From Bacteroidota bacterium (GTDB taxonomy: Bacteria > Bacteroidota > Rhodothermia > Rhodothermales > Bin80), in the NCBI GenBank assembly GCA_026708685.1, contig JAPOUL010000080.1, positions 1-46,238 of the forward strand: DNA of 46,238 bases, in the 5' to 3' direction. The notes beneath the pieces were generated by a model. It worked only from the letters and a program-made list of their open reading frames with translations, had not been told where the DNA came from and made no database searches. Below, in pieces: positions 3,679-34,673 of the stretch. Position numbers and translations under genes: made by a program. Every line of letters begins with the position of its first letter. The first letter of the stretch is position 1.

Positions 3679-5128
3679 TCATTCGGCCATGTATCCTCGT
3701 TTCTTATTTTCTCGGCGCAATCCACTGAGCGTGTAGATATTGCTTTTAAGCTGGTTACAGGGACCGCATAACAAGATACGTTTTGATATGTGGTTCACTC
3801 CTCCATCTGTTCTTGGCATATTATGATCCAGCTGCAGGTATCTTGGATCATCAAATACTCGGTCACAGCCTTGACATTTTATTCCCTGTCTGCTAAGAAG
3901 AATCTCGTACATTTCTGCACGCGTCATTTTCCGTCCAGGAGGTTCTTTGGCCTCATCATACTTCACTGGCAAAAATGGTACTGCCTTCTGCTTATCATCT
4001 GTCCGATCTGGAAGTTCTTGGGTGTAGTTGACCTTTCCAAAAACTCCAACTTCTTTTTGGAGTCTATCCACGACCACCTCCTGCACCTTATCCCATATAT
4101 CAATGCCTACCCATTGGCGATTTAGGTGCTCAGCGGCTACACAAGTAGTAGCACAACCAGCAAAGGAATCCAAGATCATATCTCCCTCGTTGCTACTGGC
4201 CTTAATGATCCGATCGTAAAGTGCCAAGGGCTTTTGAGTAGGGTATCCAGTACGTTGCTTGGCCTGAGAATTGAGGGCAGGAATGTCCGTCCATATACAA
4301 TTCAAGGTTTTTCCTTTCTGCTCATCTAAGTATCGGATCTGGCGAGGAACATTGCCTGACTTAGTCTGGACAACACGACCACTTTCGATTTCTTGGTCCA
4401 TCTCTATGTTATAGTAACTCCCATGACTTCATAGGTACAGTTGGATTGAGGATCTTGTATGGGGGCATTGATTGCTGTAAGTTGGTAAAGCCTGCCATGA
4501 GCATCAATGTTAGAGTATTTCTTTTTTGTTTTTTCGTCCAGATGATTTAGATCATATGGAATCGTGACGGCCTGTGGATTCCATACAAAATGGTTTGTCT
4601 TTGAATATCTCAGGATGATATCAGCATCTTTTGCCAATCCCTTTGTCAAGTTTCCCTTGCGAGTGATTGTTCGTTGCCAAACAATTTCATTTCGAAAATT
4701 TTTATATCCAAAAATTGCATCCATAACTGCTTTCAAGTAGTGTGAAGCAGTTGGATCACAATGTAGATACATGCTACCAGTTGGCTTCAAGAGTCTGTGC
4801 ATTTCAAGTAAACGCACGGCCATGAAGCACATATATGTACCCATGCCGTCTGAGTGAGCATACCGAGCGGATTCAATAGCCTCAATGAGCTTCGGATAGT
4901 CATCGGTCAATTGATCTACCCAGTCTTGATGTACATCCTGCTCCCAGCTCCAGCGATCCTGAAATTTTGCACAGCTGCCAATGAATCTGGTGTAGCATGA
5001 AAATCTTTCCCCTTATTGAATGGTGGATCAGTAGCAATCAAGTCTACCGATTCACTGTTCATTGAACGAAGAAACTTCAGGTTGTTTCCGTGAAAAAGAG
5101 TGCGATTTTTCCAATTAGGAGTACTCAT
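3679..5128 (-). pseudogene. DNA methyltransferase-HNH endonuclease fusion, frameshifted
   Basis: Remains of an adenine/cytosine-N DNA methyltransferase of the beta type with a C-terminal HNH nuclease domain. The N-terminal piece (5128 down to about 4970) has the catalytic DPPFNKG. A frameshift near 4965-4975 moves the reading to FQDRWSWEQDV, and one missing base restores AAGAKFQDRW. The middle frame runs to a TAG at 4404-4406 that sits where GVTxxWRWTK is expected (TGG to TAG). A second shift at about 4380-4400 leads to the last frame, with PTQKP, the SAM-binding LDSFAGCATT, and an HNH zinc-finger-like domain (CQGC, LDHNMPRTDGG, CGPCN). All three pieces are in different frames on one strand in the correct order, so this is one decayed gene. 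The HNH piece alone has an intact frame of 240 codons but starts mid-protein. Confidence 0.88.
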
Positions 5129-10455: not shown

Positions 10456-11721
10456 ATGACCCGCTGGATTCCCCATCTCGTGATTTTGTCAGTTGTTGCA
10501 CTCAGTGCATGCCGCTCTACCAGAACGGATCTGGTCCCGGAACCTCCATCTCTGGATCAGCAGATTGCTCTGGTTTCCATCTCTACAACCCCTCCATTTG
10601 TTTCTACGGATTCACCAACTGTCGTCTATCCAAATGCACTCGTGCAGATGGATTCGATCCTGATTGACTATATCCTGGCTGAAGCGTTTCCTGGAGCTGT
10701 GGTTGCCGCCGGAGTAGGTACCGAAGTCATTAAAATGAACGGATACGGTCGCTTTACTTATGATTCGCAGCAGTACACCCTGCCAAGGTCTATTTTTGAC
10801 TTGGCATCTCTGACAAAAGTCGTGGGAACAACCACCGCTACCATGCTCTTGTATGAAAGCGGAGATCTTGATCTTGAAGCCCCCGTTGCACGCTATCTGA
10901 GTGCTTATGATACCCCCGAAAGAGAATCAATTACCATATATCATCTTTTGACTCATACAAGTGGGTTGCCTGCATTTCGACCGTTCCATCAAGATGATGT
11001 CTTCACTTCCGAGACCGTGTTGGATTCTATCTTCTCTACTCCATTGATTTCAGAACCGGGTGAAGAATATAGATACAGCGATTTTGGAATGATTTCCCTA
11101 GCCCTTGCTATTGAGGAGATCACGGGAGAATCATTTGATTCCTGGTGTGAGAGGCATATCTTTACTCCCTTAGCAATGACTTCGACTGGATTTCGAAGTA
11201 CCGGCACACCCGACTCTACGATCGTCCCTACTGAAGTGGATGATGCGTTCCGTCAGCGCCTCGTACAGGGAGAGGTTCATGATGAGACAGCATGGATTTT
11301 AGGAGGGGTTGCTGGGCACGCTGGATTATTCTCCAATGCATTGGATCTATCCAATTTTGCCCAAATGATGGTACAGGGGGGAGTATATGATGGACAGCAG
11401 TTTCTACAGCCAGAAACGATTAATCAGTTCACGGCCGCAGTCGATACGTCAATGAGCACGCGTGCTCTGGGTTGGGATACCCGTAACCTGAATGATGAAC
11501 CATCTTCTGCAGGCATTTATTTCGGTCCAAAAAGTTACGGCCATACCGGCTTCACTGGCACCTCCCTATGGATTGACCCTGATTCCAAAGCCTGGGTCAT
11601 TCTTCTGACCAATCGCGTCTACCCTACCAGAGAGCGATACGATCGTTTTTGGGGATTGAGAGGACAGATTGCTGATCAGGTCTATCAAGCATTATTCTGG
11701 CCAATCAACAATGATCGTTGA
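10456..11721 (+). CDS. Beta-lactamase-family serine hydrolase, lipoprotein (copy 1)
   Basis: Lipoprotein of 421 residues (lipobox ALSAC at the end of the signal peptide) with a class C beta-lactamase/penicillin-recognising fold. The catalytic S118-x-x-K121 is in FDLASLTKVV, the YxN-equivalent tyrosine is in YRYSDFGM (Asp replaces Asn), and the third box is close to SYGHTGFTGTS, where HTG takes the KTG position. These features are typical of the esterase/DD-peptidase-like group rather than true beta-lactamases. A very similar gene follows at 11919, so the pair arose by tandem duplication. Its likely site is the inner leaflet of the outer membrane or the periplasm. Roles in peptidoglycan or ester hydrolysis are inferred from family; no resistance function is implied. 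Confidence 0.88.
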   Translation: MTRWIPHLVILSVVALSACRSTRTDLVPEPPSLDQQIALVSISTTPPFVSTDSPTVVYPNALVQMDSILIDYILAEAFPGAVVAAGVGTEVIKMNGYGRFTYDSQQYTLPRSIFDLASLTKVVGTTTATMLLYESGDLDLEAPVARYLSAYDTPERESITIYHLLTHTSGLPAFRPFHQDDVFTSETVLDSIFSTPLISEPGEEYRYSDFGMISLALAIEEITGESFDSWCERHIFTPLAMTSTGFRSTGTPDSTIVPTEVDDAFRQRLVQGEVHDETAWILGGVAGHAGLFSNALDLSNFAQMMVQGGVYDGQQFLQPETINQFTAAVDTSMSTRALGWDTRNLNDEPSSAGIYFGPKSYGHTGFTGTSLWIDPDSKAWVILLTNRVYPTRERYDRFWGLRGQIADQVYQALFWPINNDR

Positions 11722-11918
11722 TGCGAACGCAATCACATTTCGGTCTGAAAGCAAGTGGTCAGGTAATGGATTATCTGAAATCATCTATCCCGTTCAGTAC
11801 AATAAAACCTCTTTTGTCTCAATGGATCTTCCTACAACGATGCACCTGAGGATCTTAGCTGTTGAATCAACAAACTTACTTCCTTGGATCCTATCGCCAT
11901 AGGCCATTCCAAATCACC

Positions 11919-13118
11919 ATGAGTTCTCACTTCCACTCATTCTTTCTTTGCATTGCCATCTTGCTGTTTGCGGCATGCAATACCGAATCCCATGATCCTG
12001 CATCAGAATCCTCAGATGAGATTCCCATGCAGCCTACGAACTCCTATGACATTACTGGAATGCAATTGGATTCCATCATCCATGGATTCATTGAGAAAGG
12101 AGCCTTTCCAGGGGCATCCATTGCCATAGGAAAAGGCTTAGAAACATCTGTAATGGAGGGTTATGGTGCCTATACCTATACCTCTGAGCGTCAGATTACA
12201 CCTGAATCCATTTTTGATCTGGCTTCCCTTACCAAAGTGATAGCCACGACAGCCGCATCTATGCTACTGTATGAGCAAGGAAAATTACGTCTTGATGCCC
12301 CCGTTTCCACATATCTTCCTGAGTTTGACACCCCTTCACGTCGTTCCATTACGATTGGTCATCTTCTTTCCCATGCAAGTGGACTTCCATCATGGCGGCC
12401 TATGCATCTCAATGGGATGACGACCCACGATGCACTCATGGACTCAATCATGACGATTCCATTAACCGCAAGACCAGGCGAAGTATTCCAGTACAGTAGT
12501 TACGGCATGATAGTGCTAGCCAAAGTGGTAGAGATGGTGACCCAAGAACCATTTGATCAGTGGTGTGCTACTCATATTTTCGAGACCTTATCCATGATGT
12601 CCACAGGATTTCATGGTATTGGAACTCCTGATTCTACTATTGTCCCAACCGAAATAGATACCCAGTTCCGTCACCGCTTGATTCAGGGCGAAGTACATGA
12701 TGAAAATGCTTGGATCATGGGAGGCGTAGCGGGCCATGCAGGCCTTTTTTCAAATGTAGAAGATCTGTCCATCTTTGCAAAAATGATGGCAATGCGGGGA
12801 CAACACAATGGAATGCAATTCTTGCAACCTGAAACCATTGACCTCTTTACCACAGCAGTTGACACATCATTAGGTACGCGGGCACTTGGGTGGGATACTC
12901 GTGGTCCAGCCCACCAGCCATCCTCAGCTGGTCAATACTTTGGACCAAGAAGTTTTGGTCACACTGGATTCACTGGAACCTCAATCTGGATAGACCCTGA
13001 GACTCAGATCTGGGTTATTCTGCTCACAAATCGAGTCCATCCAACCCGGAATAATTATGATGCTTTTCGGGGAGTTCGTGGACTCGTTGCTGATATCGCC
13101 TATCAAGTATTTCTCTGA
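11919..13118 (+). CDS. Beta-lactamase-family serine hydrolase, lipoprotein (copy 2)
   Basis: Second member of the tandem pair, 399 residues. The start is at the ATG opening a lipoprotein signal (CIAILLFAAC); the frame runs upstream to 11862, but that extension lacks a signal. The catalytic S103-x-x-K106 is in FDLASLTKVI, the YSSYG motif takes the YxN place, and SFGHTGFTGTS is the third box. Long blocks match copy 1, including TSLGTRALGWDTRGP, GVAGHAGLFSN and GTPDSTIVPTE, while the lipoprotein linker and the 197-base spacer do not. It differs from copy 1 at YSS against YSD, which could change specificity. It may be co-transcribed with copy 1; no terminator is seen between them. Confidence 0.88.
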   Translation: MSSHFHSFFLCIAILLFAACNTESHDPASESSDEIPMQPTNSYDITGMQLDSIIHGFIEKGAFPGASIAIGKGLETSVMEGYGAYTYTSERQITPESIFDLASLTKVIATTAASMLLYEQGKLRLDAPVSTYLPEFDTPSRRSITIGHLLSHASGLPSWRPMHLNGMTTHDALMDSIMTIPLTARPGEVFQYSSYGMIVLAKVVEMVTQEPFDQWCATHIFETLSMMSTGFHGIGTPDSTIVPTEIDTQFRHRLIQGEVHDENAWIMGGVAGHAGLFSNVEDLSIFAKMMAMRGQHNGMQFLQPETIDLFTTAVDTSLGTRALGWDTRGPAHQPSSAGQYFGPRSFGHTGFTGTSIWIDPETQIWVILLTNRVHPTRNNYDAFRGVRGLVADIAYQVFL

Positions 13119-26692: not shown

Positions 26693-27064
26693 GCTCTCCA
26701 AAAATGCGTAGCCTTGTTCTGTGTCCTACCTTTCAACACATCAGATCTTTTCCCTTACAATCATTCCCATAAAATGGTGGTGCACTATCAAAGTGAGTAA
26801 TTCATTTTGATACCAAGTCTGGGTAGTATGTTGCTAGAATCTATGAAATTTAAATCCATGTTTTGATCATCCGAACTACCCCATCGCTATGGTGGTCATA
26901 AAGTCTCACACTACTGTGAATCAATTGACTCTTTCATGAGTATACATGGTCAGATTTAGGGCTGTTAGCTTATTTGTTGAGTCGTATGTTGTAGTAAAGG
27001 TATCTCTCTCTTCCCAGAAAGAAGAAAATCCTAATCGTGTAGAACTTGCTTTGACAATAAATTC
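26693..27064. other. Intergenic region before the giant repeat protein
   Basis: About 370 bases. A minus-strand frame (26921-27202) of 93 codons overlaps the beginning of the giant gene; its composition is plausible, but nothing identifies it. No terminator or repeat is seen. Confidence 0.4.
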
Positions 27065-30000
27065 ATGGTCTTGGGTTGGAAAAAGTTGATCGATTTTGGC
27101 CTTTGGTGCTTGGGTGCGTGGGTTCCGTATGGATACGAGATCACCGGTTCTAACTTTTTTGCGATCCACAAAGTAAGATGCTTCCATGTCTTGATCCATC
27201 ATGCCTTGATCTTGTGTTTTCTTGGTGCATTGTTACACCCTGGTGTCGCCTATGCTCAGATTCAACCGTTCCTCAGCCTACCCTCTTCAGAGATAGAATC
27301 CTCTGAAGAGTTGATCTTGAAACCACCTGCGGAAAGTGAGATGAAGATGATTCATATCCATCGTCTACTTTCTTACCGTAATCTCCCCCTTCCCATAGAT
27401 GCGATTCAAGTAGTTAAACCGCAATATGATCCAATCATCATTGGGTCTGCTGTGGACATGAACCAAAAGAATTTTTTCGTGAGGATGGATAAGCCCTCCC
27501 GGTTGCAGGATGTGAGTTCTTACAGCCTTTCCACCTCATCGGTGCTGGAATCAGAAGCAAAACCCAAGATATGTTTAGAAATGTCACCTTGGGTTCGCTC
27601 AGCCATGGGTGATCTTGTAGAAGTCAGAGCTGGCGATCCAATCACTGCAGTTGCTACGATTGATCGGCCAAGAAGTAGCATTACGTACGTAAAACTTCTT
27701 TTCCTTGAAAGTGACGGAAATCCTTCAAGCTTACGCGGCCTCATTTCTGGAATACCCGATTGGATTGAGATTCCTGCTGGAAAATACAAATCTAGTCCTC
27801 TTAAACTACAAACTCATTGGGACGGACGTGATGATCTAGTAGTATTGGGAGGGCTTGTAGGAAAATCCTTTTCAAATGGTTTTCACCGCGACTGTCTGTG
27901 CCCTAGTGTAGTTATCTACCATGGAGCCCCAACGCTATCGGTATCTCCCAATCCAGTTGATGATGGTAATCCTGTAACAATCACTACAGAATTTGAGAAC
28001 ACTGTATCCAGCGATCAGACCATACATTTGGTCTACCCTAATGAGTTCAACGATTCAGCTTGGGATCGTTATCACTATAAACAATTAAAATCCATTACCG
28101 TCAAGGCAAATGCAACTGAGGGAACCGGGACCATTCCGACCTACGAATTTTCGGGCGGTGGACAAAAGTCATTTGATGTAGGCATTCATCTCGCCCGTAT
28201 TCCGATTTTAGGAAATATAATTGTACAAAAAAAAACGGTAACGATCATTGATAATGAACATCCAGAAGTTTCTTTCAAATCGGCTGAATCTAATTCAGAT
28301 GAAGACAGTGGCAGCGAGATTGTGGCATTGACCATTGATCCTGCACCTGAAACAGCATTGACTGTGAACTACAGATTGGGAGGTACCGCTACTTTAAGCA
28401 CTGACTATGAAATCACAAAATCTGGAACAGTGACGGTGCCGAAGGACTCAACATCTGCGGAGATTCCAATCACAATTCTTGATGACAACGAAGATGAGCC
28501 GGATGAGACGGTGATCCTAACATTATCCGACGGAGGTAGTGCCTATGCACTTGGAAGCATCATAGAACATACGCTTACCATTACCGATAATGATACCTCG
28601 GCAGTCAGTTTCGCAGTGGGCACATCCACTGTACAAGAAGACAAGGGTATTCACAATGTAACGTTAACTATTGATCCCGCTCCTGCCAAAGCATTGACCG
28701 TGAAGTACGCGGTAGATGGAACTGCAACTGAAGGTGCTGATTACTCTATTCCACATTCTGGCAATGTCACGGTGCCGAAAGATTCAACCTCAGTGAAAAT
28801 ACCCATCAGTATTATCAAGGACGATCCGATTGAGCAGGACGAAACGATTGTGCTTACTCTGACCGATGGTGGTGATGCCTACAATCTCGGAAGCATACAA
28901 ATCCATACACTCACCATCACCGAACCTGATCCATCTGAAATTCAATTTGCGTTGGACAAATCTGTTGTTGAAGAAGGCACAAATGAACCTCAAAAGATAG
29001 AATTAACCATCAATCCTGCCCCTCCTGCCGAACTGACCGTGAACTATAGGATAGCTGATCAAAGCACTGCAATCGTAGATGTAGATTACTCCATTACAAA
29101 TTTAGGAACGGTGACAATTCCTGTCGGTGAAACCTCCGTGGACATTCCAATCAATATTGTAGACGACCAAGCGAATGAGCTTCAGGAATCGGTCATCTTC
29201 ACCCTGGCCGCCCATCCATCCTACACCCTTGGAAGCATACAGGAGCATACACTCACGATTACCGACGATGATATCCCTGCAGTCGGTTTTGTAAAGTCCA
29301 CATCTGTTGCTAATGAAGATAAAGGCACTCACAATGTAGCATTGACCATTGATCCCGCCCCTGCAACAGAATTAATTGTAACCTATACTCTGGAAGACAC
29401 CGACAATGCCGCAACCGAAGGCATTGATTTCTCCATTACAACTTTGGGCACGGTGACGCTACCATCAGGTAAACCATCGGTGAATATTCCAGTCGTCATT
29501 CGAGATGATAATGATGATGAAAAAAACGAGACGGTCACTCTTGTACTGACTGATGATGATGGAGCTTACGAAATCAAGAACCACAGAAGACATCAAGTTC
29601 TAATACTGGATGACGACGAATCGGAAGTAGTCCCGGTCAATGTAACGTTATCCGCAAGTCCTGAAAAGGTAACTGAAGGTGAAATAGTTACTCTGACGGT
29701 TACCCTGTCTGAGCCCTTATCCAATCATGTGGATATCTCCCTCAAAGATACACCCGGAGTACCACCAACCGATTCGAAAGATTATGGAATCATTCCAACC
29801 ATAAGAGTTGATGCAGGAGAACGTACTGGATCCGGCACGGTCAAAATCAATGATGATGATATTTCTGAGGGTGATGAGCAATTTACGGTTGCTTTGGATG
29901 TGTTACCGGAAGGAACCGATCGTGGTAGCCCTTTTTCCGTTAACATTATGATTCAAGACAATGCCCCCCTTCCAGTGGAAGCGTCCTTGACCGTTTCCCC

Positions 30001-33000
30001 CAAGTCAGTAGATGAAGGGCAAACCGTAGAGGTAACAGCATTGATCACCAACAAGCTTGAAACGGATATCACGATTCCACTCATATATGATGACCAGACA
30101 CAATATCCACCCGAGTCTGGCGATTATACCCCACTTGAAGACATTACAATTGTCAGCGGCCAGATTACAGGTTCTGGACAAATCCGAACTCACGAAGATA
30201 AAGATGATGACAATGAGGAATTCACTGTTTCAATTGAGAATATGGATTCAGAATACTGGATTCCCAGTGAAAATGCTAGTGAAACGGTGACCATTCAAGA
30301 TACCAGGACATCCTTACGTGTGGATCTGTCGAATGCCCCATCCGATCGCGTCTCTGAAGGAAATCAAGTGACTATTACAGCAACCTTAACCGAGAGCCAA
30401 AACGAACCTGTTACGATCCCCCTAATCCTTGTAAATGAAACCACCAGTGATGAGGACTATGTAGCCCCTGACCCGCGTGTCATTGAAATAGCTGCTGGGA
30501 GTACAAGCGGCTCCTATGTTATTTCCACCACGTATGATGACGTAGATGAAGGGGAGTTTGAGATCTTCATCGTGTCTATGGATGAAACACAGTTACCGTC
30601 TGACCTTGAAGTCGGGAACTCCTCTGTTGAAGTGAGAATTACTGATGACGATGATGCTGCAATCAATGCAGATCTTCGTGTTACCGTTACTGAAGGAAAG
30701 CAAGAAAACATTGAAATAGCCCTCAATTCACGGCCGCTCATAAATGTAACGGTAAATATCACTGCGAATTCAAATTCAGCGTTAAGCTTCTCACCACCTG
30801 TGCTTCAATTCACCCCCGAGAATTGGGGTGATACTCAACCTGTTGTACTCGATGCCCAAGACAATCAGATAGTCGGCGAAAATGACCCAGTAACTCTGAC
30901 GCTGACTACAAATGGATATACCTCAGCACCTCATAATATTGGAGTTATCATTCTTGATAATGATACACCAGGAATAGATATCCGCCCTTCATCACTTACC
31001 ATTGAAGAAGGAGATACAAAATCATTGATGGTGGCTCTTTTAAAAGCCCCATCTGATCACGTGACCGTGACGATCCCCGGTTCTGAGAAGAATTTAACAG
31101 TCAATAAAAAAACTCTGGAATTCACTCCTGATACATGGAGAAAACATCAAGAGATTAAACTCACAGCCCAGCCATTGGATGAGGATGAAGAGTCTAAAAC
31201 TGTAACACTCTTCCTAACTGGATCAGGCGGCGGTTATGATGACACCAACCATACCGTTCCGGTTACGATTATTGAAAAACCTCCTCCTCCTATACCAACC
31301 CTTTCAATTTCTGATAATTCCGCTACAGGCACCAACGGGGAGATCCAAATGCATGTGACCTTAGAACCTGCAAGCCAAAAGGTCGTTACGGTGGAATATG
31401 AGACATCAGATGATACCGCAACGGATGGAAAGGATTATGTCGCATCACGCGGCATTATGATTTTTGATGCAGGTGCAACGAGTGGAGTCATCCAAATTAT
31501 GCTGAATAAAAATGATAACTTAGATGGTGATAAGAGTTTTAAGGTTACCTTATCCAATCCTCGCAATGCGATTGTTCGCGGTGATGGTGTCGGAATAGCA
31601 ACCATTCGTGATAAAAATTCACCCGCGTCTTTGACGATTAGCGATGCATGGGTCGTAGACTCTGAGGCGTTCGTACAGTTTGTGGTCACCGTATCGGAGC
31701 CCCAATCCATGCCCGTGTCCGTTGAGTACCGTACGCAAGATGTAACGGCCACAGGAGGAGAGGATTATGAACCTCAGGCAGGATTGGTCACTCTTGCACC
31801 TGGAAAGGTTGAAGCGGTTATTGCAGTCCCTCTATTGAAGGCGGGGACAAACTGGAAACAGGAGAGCTTTGCGGTCCACTTGATCTCATCAGAGAATGCC
31901 CAGATTACTAAATCTGTCGGGGTGGCAACGACTCAAAATTCGGCTGAGCAAGATATGCATGTACTCACTGCTTATACGACCCGGTTCGTGCGGAGCTCTT
32001 CAGTCCAAATTGTAGAGGCACTGCAGCAAAGATTCCGTTCAGATGGAAATCATTCTGTATGTGGTGCGCAGGAACGTGCGGAAGCGGTGAGAATGTATGG
32101 TGGGAATTCATCATGGAACCCATCGCTGGGCGAATTACTCTCTGGATGTCATATGTCTGGATCTACAACTACATCCAGCGGTCAGTTCAGTGTTTGGGGG
32201 CGTGGAGCATTCCAGCAGTTTCAAGGTCATAGCGATGATGCACTTACCCTACGAGGTGAGGTGACCACCGGGATGCTGGGGGTAGACTATCAATGGAATC
32301 AGCAGGAAAGCACTGGAAATTGGCTTGTCGGGATGCTTGTGTCTCAAAGCCATGGTGATGGTTCATTTGATAGGGCAAGCGAATCTGGAAACCTCGCGGC
32401 AAACTTGACCAGAGTTCATCCGTACATTTCCTATTCCGGTAACGAGTGGCTGGTTTGGCTCAGCGGCGGCTATGGTTGGGGCAATGTCCAGCAAGATGCA
32501 TTGAAAAGAGATCTGACCTCTCGGTTTGGAGCACTTGGAATGCATGCCCATCTCACATCCATAGATGCTGTACGTCTTTCCTACCATGGAGATGTTCTGC
32601 TGACCGATGCCAAGGTGCAAGCACAACCTATACAAGAAGACGTAATACGGGTTCGTGTGGGAATGGAAGGGGCCTTCCAGATTTTGCAAGGAGTACAACC
32701 GTATGTAGAAGCGAATGTACGTCAGGATGGCGGAGATGCAGAAACTGGACTTGGATTGGAGCTGGGAGCAGGTGTGCGAATGAATTATCCCGCATGGCAT
32801 TTGAAAGCGGATCTGTACTCTCAGAGATTGGTACTCCATACTGCAGATGGATTTACAGAATGGGGATTCTCTGGATCCGTGCAACTCGGTCGCCGCTCCG
32901 AAGGGTTGATGGTACTCCTTCGCCCATCTTGGGGACCCGCCCAGACCATGTCCCTCTACCATCAAAGAACCATTCTTGACCCTACCCCGTCAGATCAAGC

Positions 33001-33226
33001 GACCTATCGTACCGATCTTGAACTGGGTTATGGAATGCCTTGGAAGTCTACTGTCGTACGATCCGTCATGGGAGTGACACAATTACCCTACGGAAGACTG
33101 CTTCGATTGGGCGGCGAATTAAGCCCTTGGAATCAAGCACGCTTTTCTATATCAGCACTAGGGTACCACCAACAACTCTCGGTGGAAAATGTCAGTTTTA
33201 ATGTGCAAGGATCCCTTATCTTCTAA
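27065..33226 (+). CDS. Giant Calx-beta-like repeat protein with C-terminal barrel (autotransporter-like)
   Basis: Reading frame of 2053 codons. A signal peptide (LILCFLGALLHPGVAYAQ) sits after an unusually long lead; a TTG at 27191 would give a normal 24-residue signal, so the ATG at 27065 is uncertain. Residues of about 300-400 form an unclear N-terminal domain. From about residue 398 to 1630 run about eleven modules of about 110 residues; the first four fit Calx-beta well (TATLSTDYEI, VTVPKDSTSAEIPI, DDNEDEPDETVILTLSD). The later ones are more diverged (TEGEIVTLTVTLSEPLSN). After a linker, residues of about 1710-2053 carry alternating beta-strands (VWGRGAFQQFQG, GMLGVDYQW, VGMLVSQSHGDG) and end in F, as outer-membrane barrels do. 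Calx-beta modules usually bind calcium between domains. It is probably a surface-exposed adhesin or display protein. Confidence 0.8.
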   Translation: MVLGWKKLIDFGLWCLGAWVPYGYEITGSNFFAIHKVRCFHVLIHHALILCFLGALLHPGVAYAQIQPFLSLPSSEIESSEELILKPPAESEMKMIHIHRLLSYRNLPLPIDAIQVVKPQYDPIIIGSAVDMNQKNFFVRMDKPSRLQDVSSYSLSTSSVLESEAKPKICLEMSPWVRSAMGDLVEVRAGDPITAVATIDRPRSSITYVKLLFLESDGNPSSLRGLISGIPDWIEIPAGKYKSSPLKLQTHWDGRDDLVVLGGLVGKSFSNGFHRDCLCPSVVIYHGAPTLSVSPNPVDDGNPVTITTEFENTVSSDQTIHLVYPNEFNDSAWDRYHYKQLKSITVKANATEGTGTIPTYEFSGGGQKSFDVGIHLARIPILGNIIVQKKTVTIIDNEHPEVSFKSAESNSDEDSGSEIVALTIDPAPETALTVNYRLGGTATLSTDYEITKSGTVTVPKDSTSAEIPITILDDNEDEPDETVILTLSDGGSAYALGSIIEHTLTITDNDTSAVSFAVGTSTVQEDKGIHNVTLTIDPAPAKALTVKYAVDGTATEGADYSIPHSGNVTVPKDSTSVKIPISIIKDDPIEQDETIVLTLTDGGDAYNLGSIQIHTLTITEPDPSEIQFALDKSVVEEGTNEPQKIELTINPAPPAELTVNYRIADQSTAIVDVDYSITNLGTVTIPVGETSVDIPINIVDDQANELQESVIFTLAAHPSYTLGSIQEHTLTITDDDIPAVGFVKSTSVANEDKGTHNVALTIDPAPATELIVTYTLEDTDNAATEGIDFSITTLGTVTLPSGKPSVNIPVVIRDDNDDEKNETVTLVLTDDDGAYEIKNHRRHQVLILDDDESEVVPVNVTLSASPEKVTEGEIVTLTVTLSEPLSNHVDISLKDTPGVPPTDSKDYGIIPTIRVDAGERTGSGTVKINDDDISEGDEQFTVALDVLPEGTDRGSPFSVNIMIQDNAPLPVEASLTVSPKSVDEGQTVEVTALITNKLETDITIPLIYDDQTQYPPESGDYTPLEDITIVSGQITGSGQIRTHEDKDDDNEEFTVSIENMDSEYWIPSENASETVTIQDTRTSLRVDLSNAPSDRVSEGNQVTITATLTESQNEPVTIPLILVNETTSDEDYVAPDPRVIEIAAGSTSGSYVISTTYDDVDEGEFEIFIVSMDETQLPSDLEVGNSSVEVRITDDDDAAINADLRVTVTEGKQENIEIALNSRPLINVTVNITANSNSALSFSPPVLQFTPENWGDTQPVVLDAQDNQIVGENDPVTLTLTTNGYTSAPHNIGVIILDNDTPGIDIRPSSLTIEEGDTKSLMVALLKAPSDHVTVTIPGSEKNLTVNKKTLEFTPDTWRKHQEIKLTAQPLDEDEESKTVTLFLTGSGGGYDDTNHTVPVTIIEKPPPPIPTLSISDNSATGTNGEIQMHVTLEPASQKVVTVEYETSDDTATDGKDYVASRGIMIFDAGATSGVIQIMLNKNDNLDGDKSFKVTLSNPRNAIVRGDGVGIATIRDKNSPASLTISDAWVVDSEAFVQFVVTVSEPQSMPVSVEYRTQDVTATGGEDYEPQAGLVTLAPGKVEAVIAVPLLKAGTNWKQESFAVHLISSENAQITKSVGVATTQNSAEQDMHVLTAYTTRFVRSSSVQIVEALQQRFRSDGNHSVCGAQERAEAVRMYGGNSSWNPSLGELLSGCHMSGSTTTSSGQFSVWGRGAFQQFQGHSDDALTLRGEVTTGMLGVDYQWNQQESTGNWLVGMLVSQSHGDGSFDRASESGNLAANLTRVHPYISYSGNEWLVWLSGGYGWGNVQQDALKRDLTSRFGALGMHAHLTSIDAVRLSYHGDVLLTDAKVQAQPIQEDVIRVRVGMEGAFQILQGVQPYVEANVRQDGGDAETGLGLELGAGVRMNYPAWHLKADLYSQRLVLHTADGFTEWGFSGSVQLGRRSEGLMVLLRPSWGPAQTMSLYHQRTILDPTPSDQATYRTDLELGYGMPWKSTVVRSVMGVTQLPYGRLLRLGGELSPWNQARFSISALGYHQQLSVENVSFNVQGSLIF

Positions 33227-33560: not shown

Positions 33561-34673
33561 CTATTGATTTGTCGGCCCGTATTCGGACACCAGCCACGTC
33601 TGCATGGAGGGAATGGGGATAGCATAGTCTCCGTTCGTGCACTCATCCAGTATGCCCTGTCGGAGCACGCGGCGAAACACTTCTACGGCATCCTCGCGGG
33701 AGTGGTTTTCCATGAGTGCGTCCATGAGCGATCGTTGGGTAATGGTGGCACCTATAGGTTGATCCGTGAATAGGTCCGCGATGAGGCTACGCTGCTCCCT
33801 ATTGATCCCGTGAGCACGGGTCTCGTAATACGCAAGTTAGTAGGCCCGCCCCACCTCCAGTACCCGTTCCAGCACGGCTTGAGTGGGCTTCTCACCACCC
33901 TCTGCAATGACTTGTCGCACCGCTTCTACGTAGCACATAATGTGGTGGGGCTATCCATGCGTCTGCTCGGCTATGGTTGGTATCCAGCCATCCGGTGGTG
34001 ATTCCATGCCAAATTGATGACGTAGATTGTCTTCAATCACTGCCCGCGTGAGATGGTGTCGAAGGGGCCGAGCCGCACCCTAAGGCCGTCCTCTATGCGG
34101 GACACGCCTATGGACTCAAATGCCATCTCAGTGTTTCCCGTCCGCCTGCAAGCAGGGTGACGGGACGGCCGACCTGACCGTTATGGATCATGTTTAGCGT
34201 GGATGTGGCCTCAACCTTGACGGAAGCGGGGGATGCAAGGTCAGCAATGTGCTGGGCCTCGTCCAGCAGTAGCAACAGCCCATTGCTACTGGTAGCCTCG
34301 CGGATGATATCGACGACGGATGACAGTTCAACCGTCTCCTTTTTTCGGAAAAAGTTTACGATCTTTGCGTTGATCCCCCGCCTCTCTCCCTTCAAGGTGT
34401 ATAGGGCACGCCTAGCCTTTTCGCCATGGCCGCGGGGTCGAGTAAGGCGGAGGGGGTGATATTGCCTGCTATCGTATAGCCGATACCCTCCGCGTGTCTG
34501 GACAACTCACTCATCAGTGCCGTTTTGCCTGTGCCAGGAGGGCCTTTGATGAGAAAGATGCTACCTCCTGCACAACTTTGATAGTGATCAAGTGCACGCA
34601 GGAAGGGATTGATGATTTCGTCCCTTCCATGAAAGTAGTGTGCAGGACCTCTGAACTCAATGAATTTGTGCAT
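33561..34673 (-). pseudogene. AAA-type ATPase gene, multiply frameshifted and stopped
   Basis: Remains of a P-loop ATPase that keep their order on the minus strand. Piece one (34673-34392) has FRGPAHYFHGRDEIINPF and Walker A GPPGTGKTALMSEL. A frameshift near 34395 leads to piece two, with GLLLLLDEAQHI (Walker B) and VTLLAGGRET. Another shift near 34123 gives FESIGVSRIEDGLRVRLGPFD, and a third near 34040 gives VIEDNLRHQFGME. Downstream, TAG at 33951-33953 (where THGWPHH is expected) and TAA at 33837-33839 interrupt a frame that ends properly at 33561. At least three frame changes and two stops mean it cannot be functional. The DEAQ Walker B and layout fit the STAND-like ATPases often linked to sensing or defence; the original role is unknown. 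Confidence 0.85.

What the first reader, a model, noticed from the sequence alone, without database searches (positions are those of the whole stretch)
27065..33226. Calx-beta repeat array joined to an autotransporter-like barrel
About eleven Calx-beta-like modules in a row are followed by a candidate barrel ending in F. Autotransporters are mainly known from Proteobacteria, so a Bacteroidota-type version carrying calcium-binding modules is unusual and may be a self-exported surface adhesin.
Basis: partly seen in the sequence, partly recalled or inferred. Interest (0 to 1): 0.55.

Follow-up and report, generated by a model that had tools for sequence, protein, structure and literature searches.

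The report
Giant calcium-module autotransporter-like surface protein
An uncultured Rhodothermaceae-type bacterium carries a very large predicted surface protein, a chain of twelve calcium-type modules that ends in an outer-membrane barrel resembling autotransporters, and it is one of about a dozen such genes in this genome.

Summary
One open frame (27065-33226, 2053 aa) encodes a signal-like segment, a ~220-aa unassigned region, twelve (not eleven) Calx-beta-type sandwiches of four sequence types, then a membrane domain. AlphaFold models of that domain show a helix followed by a beta-barrel; structure comparison puts autotransporter translocators first (EspP Z 22.9, NalP 21.9, Hbp 21.9, AIDA-I 21.4). 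It is not a one-off: the genome has ten full-length barrels of this family plus two split ones, all 10 genomes of the genus held (own included) have relatives, but only 10 of 394 sampled from the phylum. Two features depart from textbook autotransporters: a cysteine pair invariant in 27 of 27 barrels, and ~110 extra C-terminal residues with membrane-type strands, which suggest more than 12 strands (18 fits topology; unproven, low-confidence region). Five Calx-beta arrays of the genome end in type IX tails instead, so one passenger type uses two exits. 'Autotransporter in Bacteroidota' alone is not new: 63 of 394 sampled genomes pass PF03797's cut-off. Verdict: real, a new variant of a known kind, moderately interesting.

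The parts
27065..33226 (+). whole open frame, 2053 aa, Calx-beta array plus C-terminal translocator
27191..27256 (+). signal-peptide-like segment (residues 43-64, ...GVAYA|Q); real start codon uncertain, in-frame TTG at 27191 or upstream ATG 27065
   Evidence: read by eye; no signal-peptide program run
27257..27919 (+). N-terminal region, residues 65-285, no Pfam domain listed
27920..28252 (+). module 1 (type A, like modules 6-8)
28253..29620 (+). modules 2-5 (type B, 39-58% identical to each other; acidic Ca-type loops)
29621..30649 (+). modules 6-8 (type A)
30650..31276 (+). modules 9-10 (type C, 33% identical)
31277..31609 (+). module 11 (Calx-beta, 60.6 bits), barrel-linked pair, part 1
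31610..31936 (+). module 12 (Calx-beta, 47.7 bits), barrel-linked pair, part 2; acidic (DxD-type) exit absent
31940..32038 (+). predicted helix (residues 1626-1658), aligned with the helix that lies in the pore of autotransporters
32060..32149 (+). segment from Cys1666 to Cys1695, both invariant in 27 of 27 barrels (possible disulfide)
32180..32896 (+). about 12 predicted strands (residues 1706-1944) that superpose on complete autotransporter barrels
   Evidence: PF03797 match 32192-32545
32897..33223 (+). extra C-terminal stretch (residues 1945-2053), amphipathic strands, low model confidence, terminal Phe

Best explanation
A monomeric autotransporter-type surface protein, most likely an adhesin. 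The chain is exported to the periplasm by Sec; BAM (perhaps helped by TAM) recognises the C-terminal strand and inserts the barrel; the helix just before the barrel lies in the pore; the Calx-beta array is threaded to the outside, modules 12 and 11 first, and folds into a rod that Ca2+ at the module borders stiffens; the N-terminal part is the far tip that contacts a partner. Shown: frame, modules, helix-plus-barrel prediction, structural match to autotransporters, presence of Omp85 and TamB genes, a multigene family with a conserved module 11-12 / helix / Cys-pair / barrel unit. Inferred: signal cleavage, self-export, order of threading, Ca2+ binding, surface exposure, adhesion and its target.
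For: Structure: EspP Z 22.9 over 263 residues at 2.8 A, NalP 21.9, Hbp 21.9, AIDA-I 21.4, EstA 19.0, all aligned from the helix on; barrel-only model EspP 18.2, NalP 17.6, AIDA-I 17.4. Foldseek: BrkA beta-domain E 2.2e-5, solved Calx-beta domains E ~1e-6. Sequence: PF03797 32.6 bits, cut-off 26, for this gene; 15 matches in the genome. Last residue aromatic in 25 of 27 barrels (21 Y, 4 F, 1 H, 1 N). Machinery: five Omp85 matches, two TamB matches, one of them under 4 kb from an Omp85 match on contig C1. No T9SS tail listed for this protein, though the genome has 59 matches. Family: 10 full-length and 2 split barrels in the genome; modules 11 and 12 are on average 45% and 48% identical among 24 proteins.
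Against: hmmscan with Pfam did not list PF03797 for the whole protein at E<=1 nor for the barrel at E<=10 (only OMP_b-brl, 18.5 bits, below its cut-off 28.7). Profile comparison with four E. coli K-12 autotransporter ends gave nothing (probability 0.2%, E 0.27). No solved chain matched the barrel profile up to E 10. In the barrel-only model the lead is small: CymA has Z 16.8 beside AIDA-I 17.4, and Foldseek there puts a Bdellovibrio OmpA-like pentamer first (E 9.2e-6, EspP 2.4e-5). About 110 C-terminal residues are outside the 12-strand match. Model confidence is modest, from 6 sequences.
Confidence: 0.76

Rival explanations
1. An ordinary outer-membrane barrel whose Calx-beta array stays in the periplasm, for example as a tether; no self-export.
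For: A soluble N-terminal part plus C-terminal barrel would fit this too; other barrels also match (CymA Z 17.7 and 16.8; TonB receptors over residues 20-419 of the barrel model at Z about 14).
Against: Twelve modules of ~110 aa should be longer than a periplasm (general knowledge); autotransporters with their helix rank first in both models; modules 11-12, helix and barrel are conserved as a unit.
Confidence: 0.1
2. The array is exported by another system (type IX or type I) and the barrel only anchors it.
For: The genome has 59 T9SS-tail matches, and five Calx-beta frames end in such a tail; for a Calx-beta adhesin of Pseudoalteromonas (BapP) a T1SS was proposed, though its authors also name a type V route because of its Sec signal (PMC12153261, passages read).
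Against: No T9SS tail listed for this protein; aromatic last residue and barrel are a BAM-type ending.
Confidence: 0.08
3. A decaying, no longer expressed family copy.
For: Two sister genes have split barrels (C118, C128), and a decayed ATPase gene lies just downstream.
Against: The window frame is intact over 2053 codons and keeps the invariant columns including the Cys pair.
Confidence: 0.04

Closest known systems
Type Va (classical) autotransporters: EspP, NalP, Hbp, AIDA-I, EstA, BrkA translocators (PF03797)
   Same: single chain, N-terminal passenger, helix then C-terminal barrel, aromatic last residue; best structural matches
   Different: passenger is a chain of Calx-beta sandwiches (classical passengers are mostly beta-helices, recalled); ~110 extra C-terminal residues with further strands; invariant Cys pair between helix and barrel; no detectable sequence relation to four K-12 autotransporter ends
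Ca2+-dependent adhesins with Calx-beta modules (BapP of Pseudoalteromonas, LapA)
   Same: long arrays of Calx-beta-type sandwiches, BapP shown to act in Ca2+-influenced biofilm formation (PMC12153261, passages read; LapA in PMC7616799, one passage read)
   Different: the BapP model in the passages has a propeller and 12 sandwiches, no barrel is mentioned, and a T1SS is proposed; the LapA passage speaks of a type II system (type I by recall)
T9SS-tailed Calx-beta proteins of the same genome
   Same: same passenger domain family
   Different: end in a Por_Secre_tail instead of a barrel
Inverse autotransporters (intimin/invasin, type Ve)
   Same: also display Ig-like sandwiches (recalled)
   Different: their barrel is N-terminal (recalled); here it is C-terminal

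Membership tests
Calx-beta domain (PF03160) | profile match over curated cut-off | tested here: met
   214.9 bits against 27; the last module superposes on CALX/NCX and integrin beta4 Calx-beta domains at Z about 15
Calx-beta domain (PF03160) | Ca2+ bound by acidic loops | not testable with these tools
   acidic loops visible in many modules, acidic exit absent in module 12; no assay
[quoted passage not shown]
   hydrophobic segment ending AYA|Q read by eye; start codon uncertain
Type Va autotransporter | C-terminal barrel preceded by a helix in the pore | tested here: met
   predicted helix 1626-1658 and barrel, aligned with EspP 999-1300; prediction only, modest confidence
Type Va autotransporter | barrel of 12 strands | tested here: inconclusive
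   12 strands fit up to about residue 1944, but strands continue for ~110 residues at low confidence
Type Va autotransporter | PF03797 match | tested here: inconclusive
   32.6 bits over cut-off 26 in the genome search, but not listed by hmmscan
Type Va autotransporter | aromatic C-terminal residue (BAM signal) | tested here: met
   25 of 27; window ends in F
Type Va autotransporter | passenger reaches the surface through its own barrel | not testable with these tools
   needs surface labelling
T9SS cargo | C-terminal TIGR04183-type tail | tested here: not met
   not listed for this protein at E<=1

The most novel reading that the evidence does not exclude
An enlarged autotransporter: the translocator starts like a classical 12-strand one but has about 18 strands, and its wider pore, with a disulfide-closed segment next to the pore helix, exports chains of beta-sandwich modules instead of a beta-helix. 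A count of 18 is even, puts the 25-residue loop 1958-1982 outside and the C-terminus in the periplasm; four of the six additional strands are about as amphipathic as strands 2 and 6-12 (shuffle fractions 0.082, 0.017, 0.020, 0.017), two are not (0.49, 0.44).
Probability: 0.3. Interest if true: 0.62.

Novelty: new variant of a known kind. Interest (0 to 1): 0.43.

Why it matters
Classical autotransporter passengers are mostly beta-helices, and a usual explanation of export is stepwise helix folding outside (both recalled). A family that seems to export long chains of separate Calx-beta sandwiches, in a bacterium that also owns type IX tails and puts other Calx-beta arrays on them, would allow a direct comparison of two exits for one passenger type. 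It also points to a sizeable surface repertoire: one to ten full-length copies in six of the ten genomes of the genus, more distant relatives in the other four. Some named relatives are sponge MAGs by recall, which would make a host-attachment role testable.

Tried and rejected
Shared recombination tracts between sister genes (antigen-shuffling idea): exact matches of 25 bases or more between different genes were at most 35 bases (46 between the C14 gene and a fragment on the same contig); longer ones lay within one gene (194 bases in C128, 91 in C168). One contig-tip fragment (C25 end) was put in the wrong orientation in that script and not all tips were included, so tips were not properly tested. 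Not supported, not excluded.

Position: the SpoU-decarboxylase block beside the gene is kept in 9 of 9 congeneric regions fetched, and no relative of the barrel lies next to it in them; two of the nine (L105, L109) end shortly after SpoU, and L111 has a Calx-beta-type frame about 7 kb away.

ATPase partner: an expanded AAA_16-like ATPase family lies within 2.5 kb downstream of 6 of 36 barrel genes in four genomes, about 1.2 expected (Poisson P 0.0013). The test was made after seeing the pattern, coordinates and rough family sizes were entered by hand, so I do not count it as a part.

Other phyla: plasmids and viral contigs gave no relative; a Pseudomonadota-wide search could not be run. From memory, similar barrels occur in proteobacterial MAGs; recalled, not tested. 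The phylum searches scored at most 4 or 6 candidates per genome.

Print: in the listings of searches (lists were capped: 15 of 23, 15 of 51, 8 of 230 in 81, 82, 95) and in passages of five papers I saw no description of this family; most subscription journals are not in that library.

Full report
What is there. The frame 27065-33226 (+) is intact, 2053 aa, and ends in F. Residues about 43-64 look like a signal peptide ending AYA|Q, read by eye; the listed ATG lies far upstream and overlaps an opposite frame (26921-27202), so an in-frame TTG at 27191 is a possible start. No Pfam family is listed for residues 65-285. Pfam Calx-beta scores 214.9 bits over 7 stretches. With borders set by eye, alignment gives twelve sandwiches: type A (modules 1, 6, 7, 8; 25-34% identity), type B (2-5; 39-58%), type C (9, 10; 33%), type D (11, 12; 34%). 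Module 1 resembles 6-8 (25-30%) more than 2-5 (6-17%), as if the type B block had been inserted and duplicated in place.

The translocator. Two AlphaFold jobs with six sequences (window plus L054-L058) gave mean pLDDT 65.0 and 62.6; in each, two or three of the five models were much poorer. Both best models show a helix (residues 1626-1658 in the first), short helices between two cysteines, and a barrel. On the barrel-only model: EspP 18.2, NalP 17.6, AIDA-I 17.4, with CymA 16.8, CdiB 15.7, BamA 15.4 and FadL 15.2 close behind, so the lead there is small. Foldseek: solved Calx-beta domains at E about 1e-6 and BrkA at 2.2e-5; with the barrel-only model a Bdellovibrio OmpA-like pentamer comes first (9.2e-6), EspP second (2.4e-5). 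Sequence evidence is weaker and mixed: PF03797 32.6 bits, over its cut-off, in the genome search, but absent from hmmscan lists; no PDB chain by profile; no relation to four E. coli K-12 autotransporter ends.

The extra C-terminus. Autotransporter barrels fit up to about residue 1944; 109 residues remain, with block-mean pLDDT about 27-54. Using 27 barrels (loci held, of the 39 full-length matches I count), strands proposed at 1946-1957, 1983-1993, 2010-2022 and 2043-2053 are about as amphipathic as strands 2 and 6-12; those at 1996-2007 and 2025-2035 are not, and strands 1, 3, 4 and 5 are also unremarkable against shuffles; 1958-1982 looks like a loop. I chose the strand list from the model, so this is a consistency check. 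Counted so there are 18 strands, an even number that places the long loop outside. This is inference.

Family and distribution. In the own genome the barrel has 21 matches: 10 full-length, two genes whose barrel is split in two frames (C118, C128), four fragments at contig ends and three distant barrels. Of 23 frames with Calx-beta matches that I count, 12 carry this barrel (two of them split), 5 carry a T9SS tail in the same frame (C118 839 aa, C23, C168, C75, C69) and 6 carry neither. All 10 of 10 genomes of the genus match the barrel profile; in a phylum sample 10 of 394 genomes and 3 of 170 genera do. Named relatives are MAGs: Bacteroidetes CAR3_bin_6 (four loci), Rhodothermaceae SB0661_bin_24 and bin80. 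PF03797 at large is over its cut-off in 63 of 394 genomes, the strong matches in one other family, f25. Abby et al. [quoted passage not shown] A tree of 27 barrels needs at least 6 label changes for the 10 own-genome rows, with well supported cross-genome pairs such as L018/L085: at least part of the duplication is older than the species split.

Conserved unit. In 24 of the 27 proteins (those with enough upstream sequence) modules 11 and 12 are on average 45% and 48% identical. By my count in that alignment the exit of module 11 keeps two or more acidic residues in 18 of 24, and the exit of module 12 lacks an Asp pair in 20 of 24. In the window copy the module 11 exit is also weak (RDKN). Cys1666 and Cys1695 are invariant, 27 of 27; last residue Y 21, F 4, H 1, N 1. 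I read modules 11-12, linker, helix, Cys pair and barrel as one export unit to which different arrays are joined.

Machinery. Five Omp85-family matches and two TamB matches, one TamB match under 4 kb from an Omp85 match on C1, fit BAM plus TAM. A 2015 survey says that several phyla with TamL and TamB have no autotransporters (PMC4494059, passages read); this genome would have both.

Mechanism and limits. Export through its own barrel, Ca2+-stiffened stalk and adhesion are inferred from family knowledge. Not tested: signal cleavage, surface exposure, calcium, partner, passenger cleavage. The genome is a 170-contig assembly, 99.64% complete. That relatives such as SB0661 come from sponges is recalled.

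Scores.

Noticed in passing
window 33573-34637 (-): Decayed copy (stops inside) of an AAA_16/nSTAND-like ATPase family with 69 matches in this genome (E<=0.001) and, at E<=1e-10, 60, 55, 40, 4 and 1 in five congeners: a striking lineage-specific expansion of unknown role (domains).
   Followed up: partly
L039:8545-9776 (G000:C118) and L044:7747-9007 (G000:C128): Two sister genes whose barrel is split between two reading frames: pseudogenes, assembly errors or switchable genes; not resolved.
   Followed up: partly
L047:6788-11080 (G000:C168): Calx-beta array with near-identical units (exact repeats up to 91 bases) ending in a T9SS tail: same passenger kind, other exit.
   Followed up: partly
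G000 contig ends C41, C25, C97, C168, and similar tips in G388, G395, G396: Many contigs break inside the 3' part of barrel genes, suggesting near-identical copies or strain variation there.
   Followed up: no
L040:17311-19734, L045:5344-7332, L046:7253-16150: A second, more distant set of autotransporter-like barrels with other passengers.
   Followed up: no
window 10456-13118 (+): Two adjacent genes of the beta-lactamase-type family PF00144.
   Followed up: no
window 3679-4401 (-): Frame joining part of a DNA methylase (N6_N4_Mtase) to an HNH endonuclease domain.
   Followed up: no
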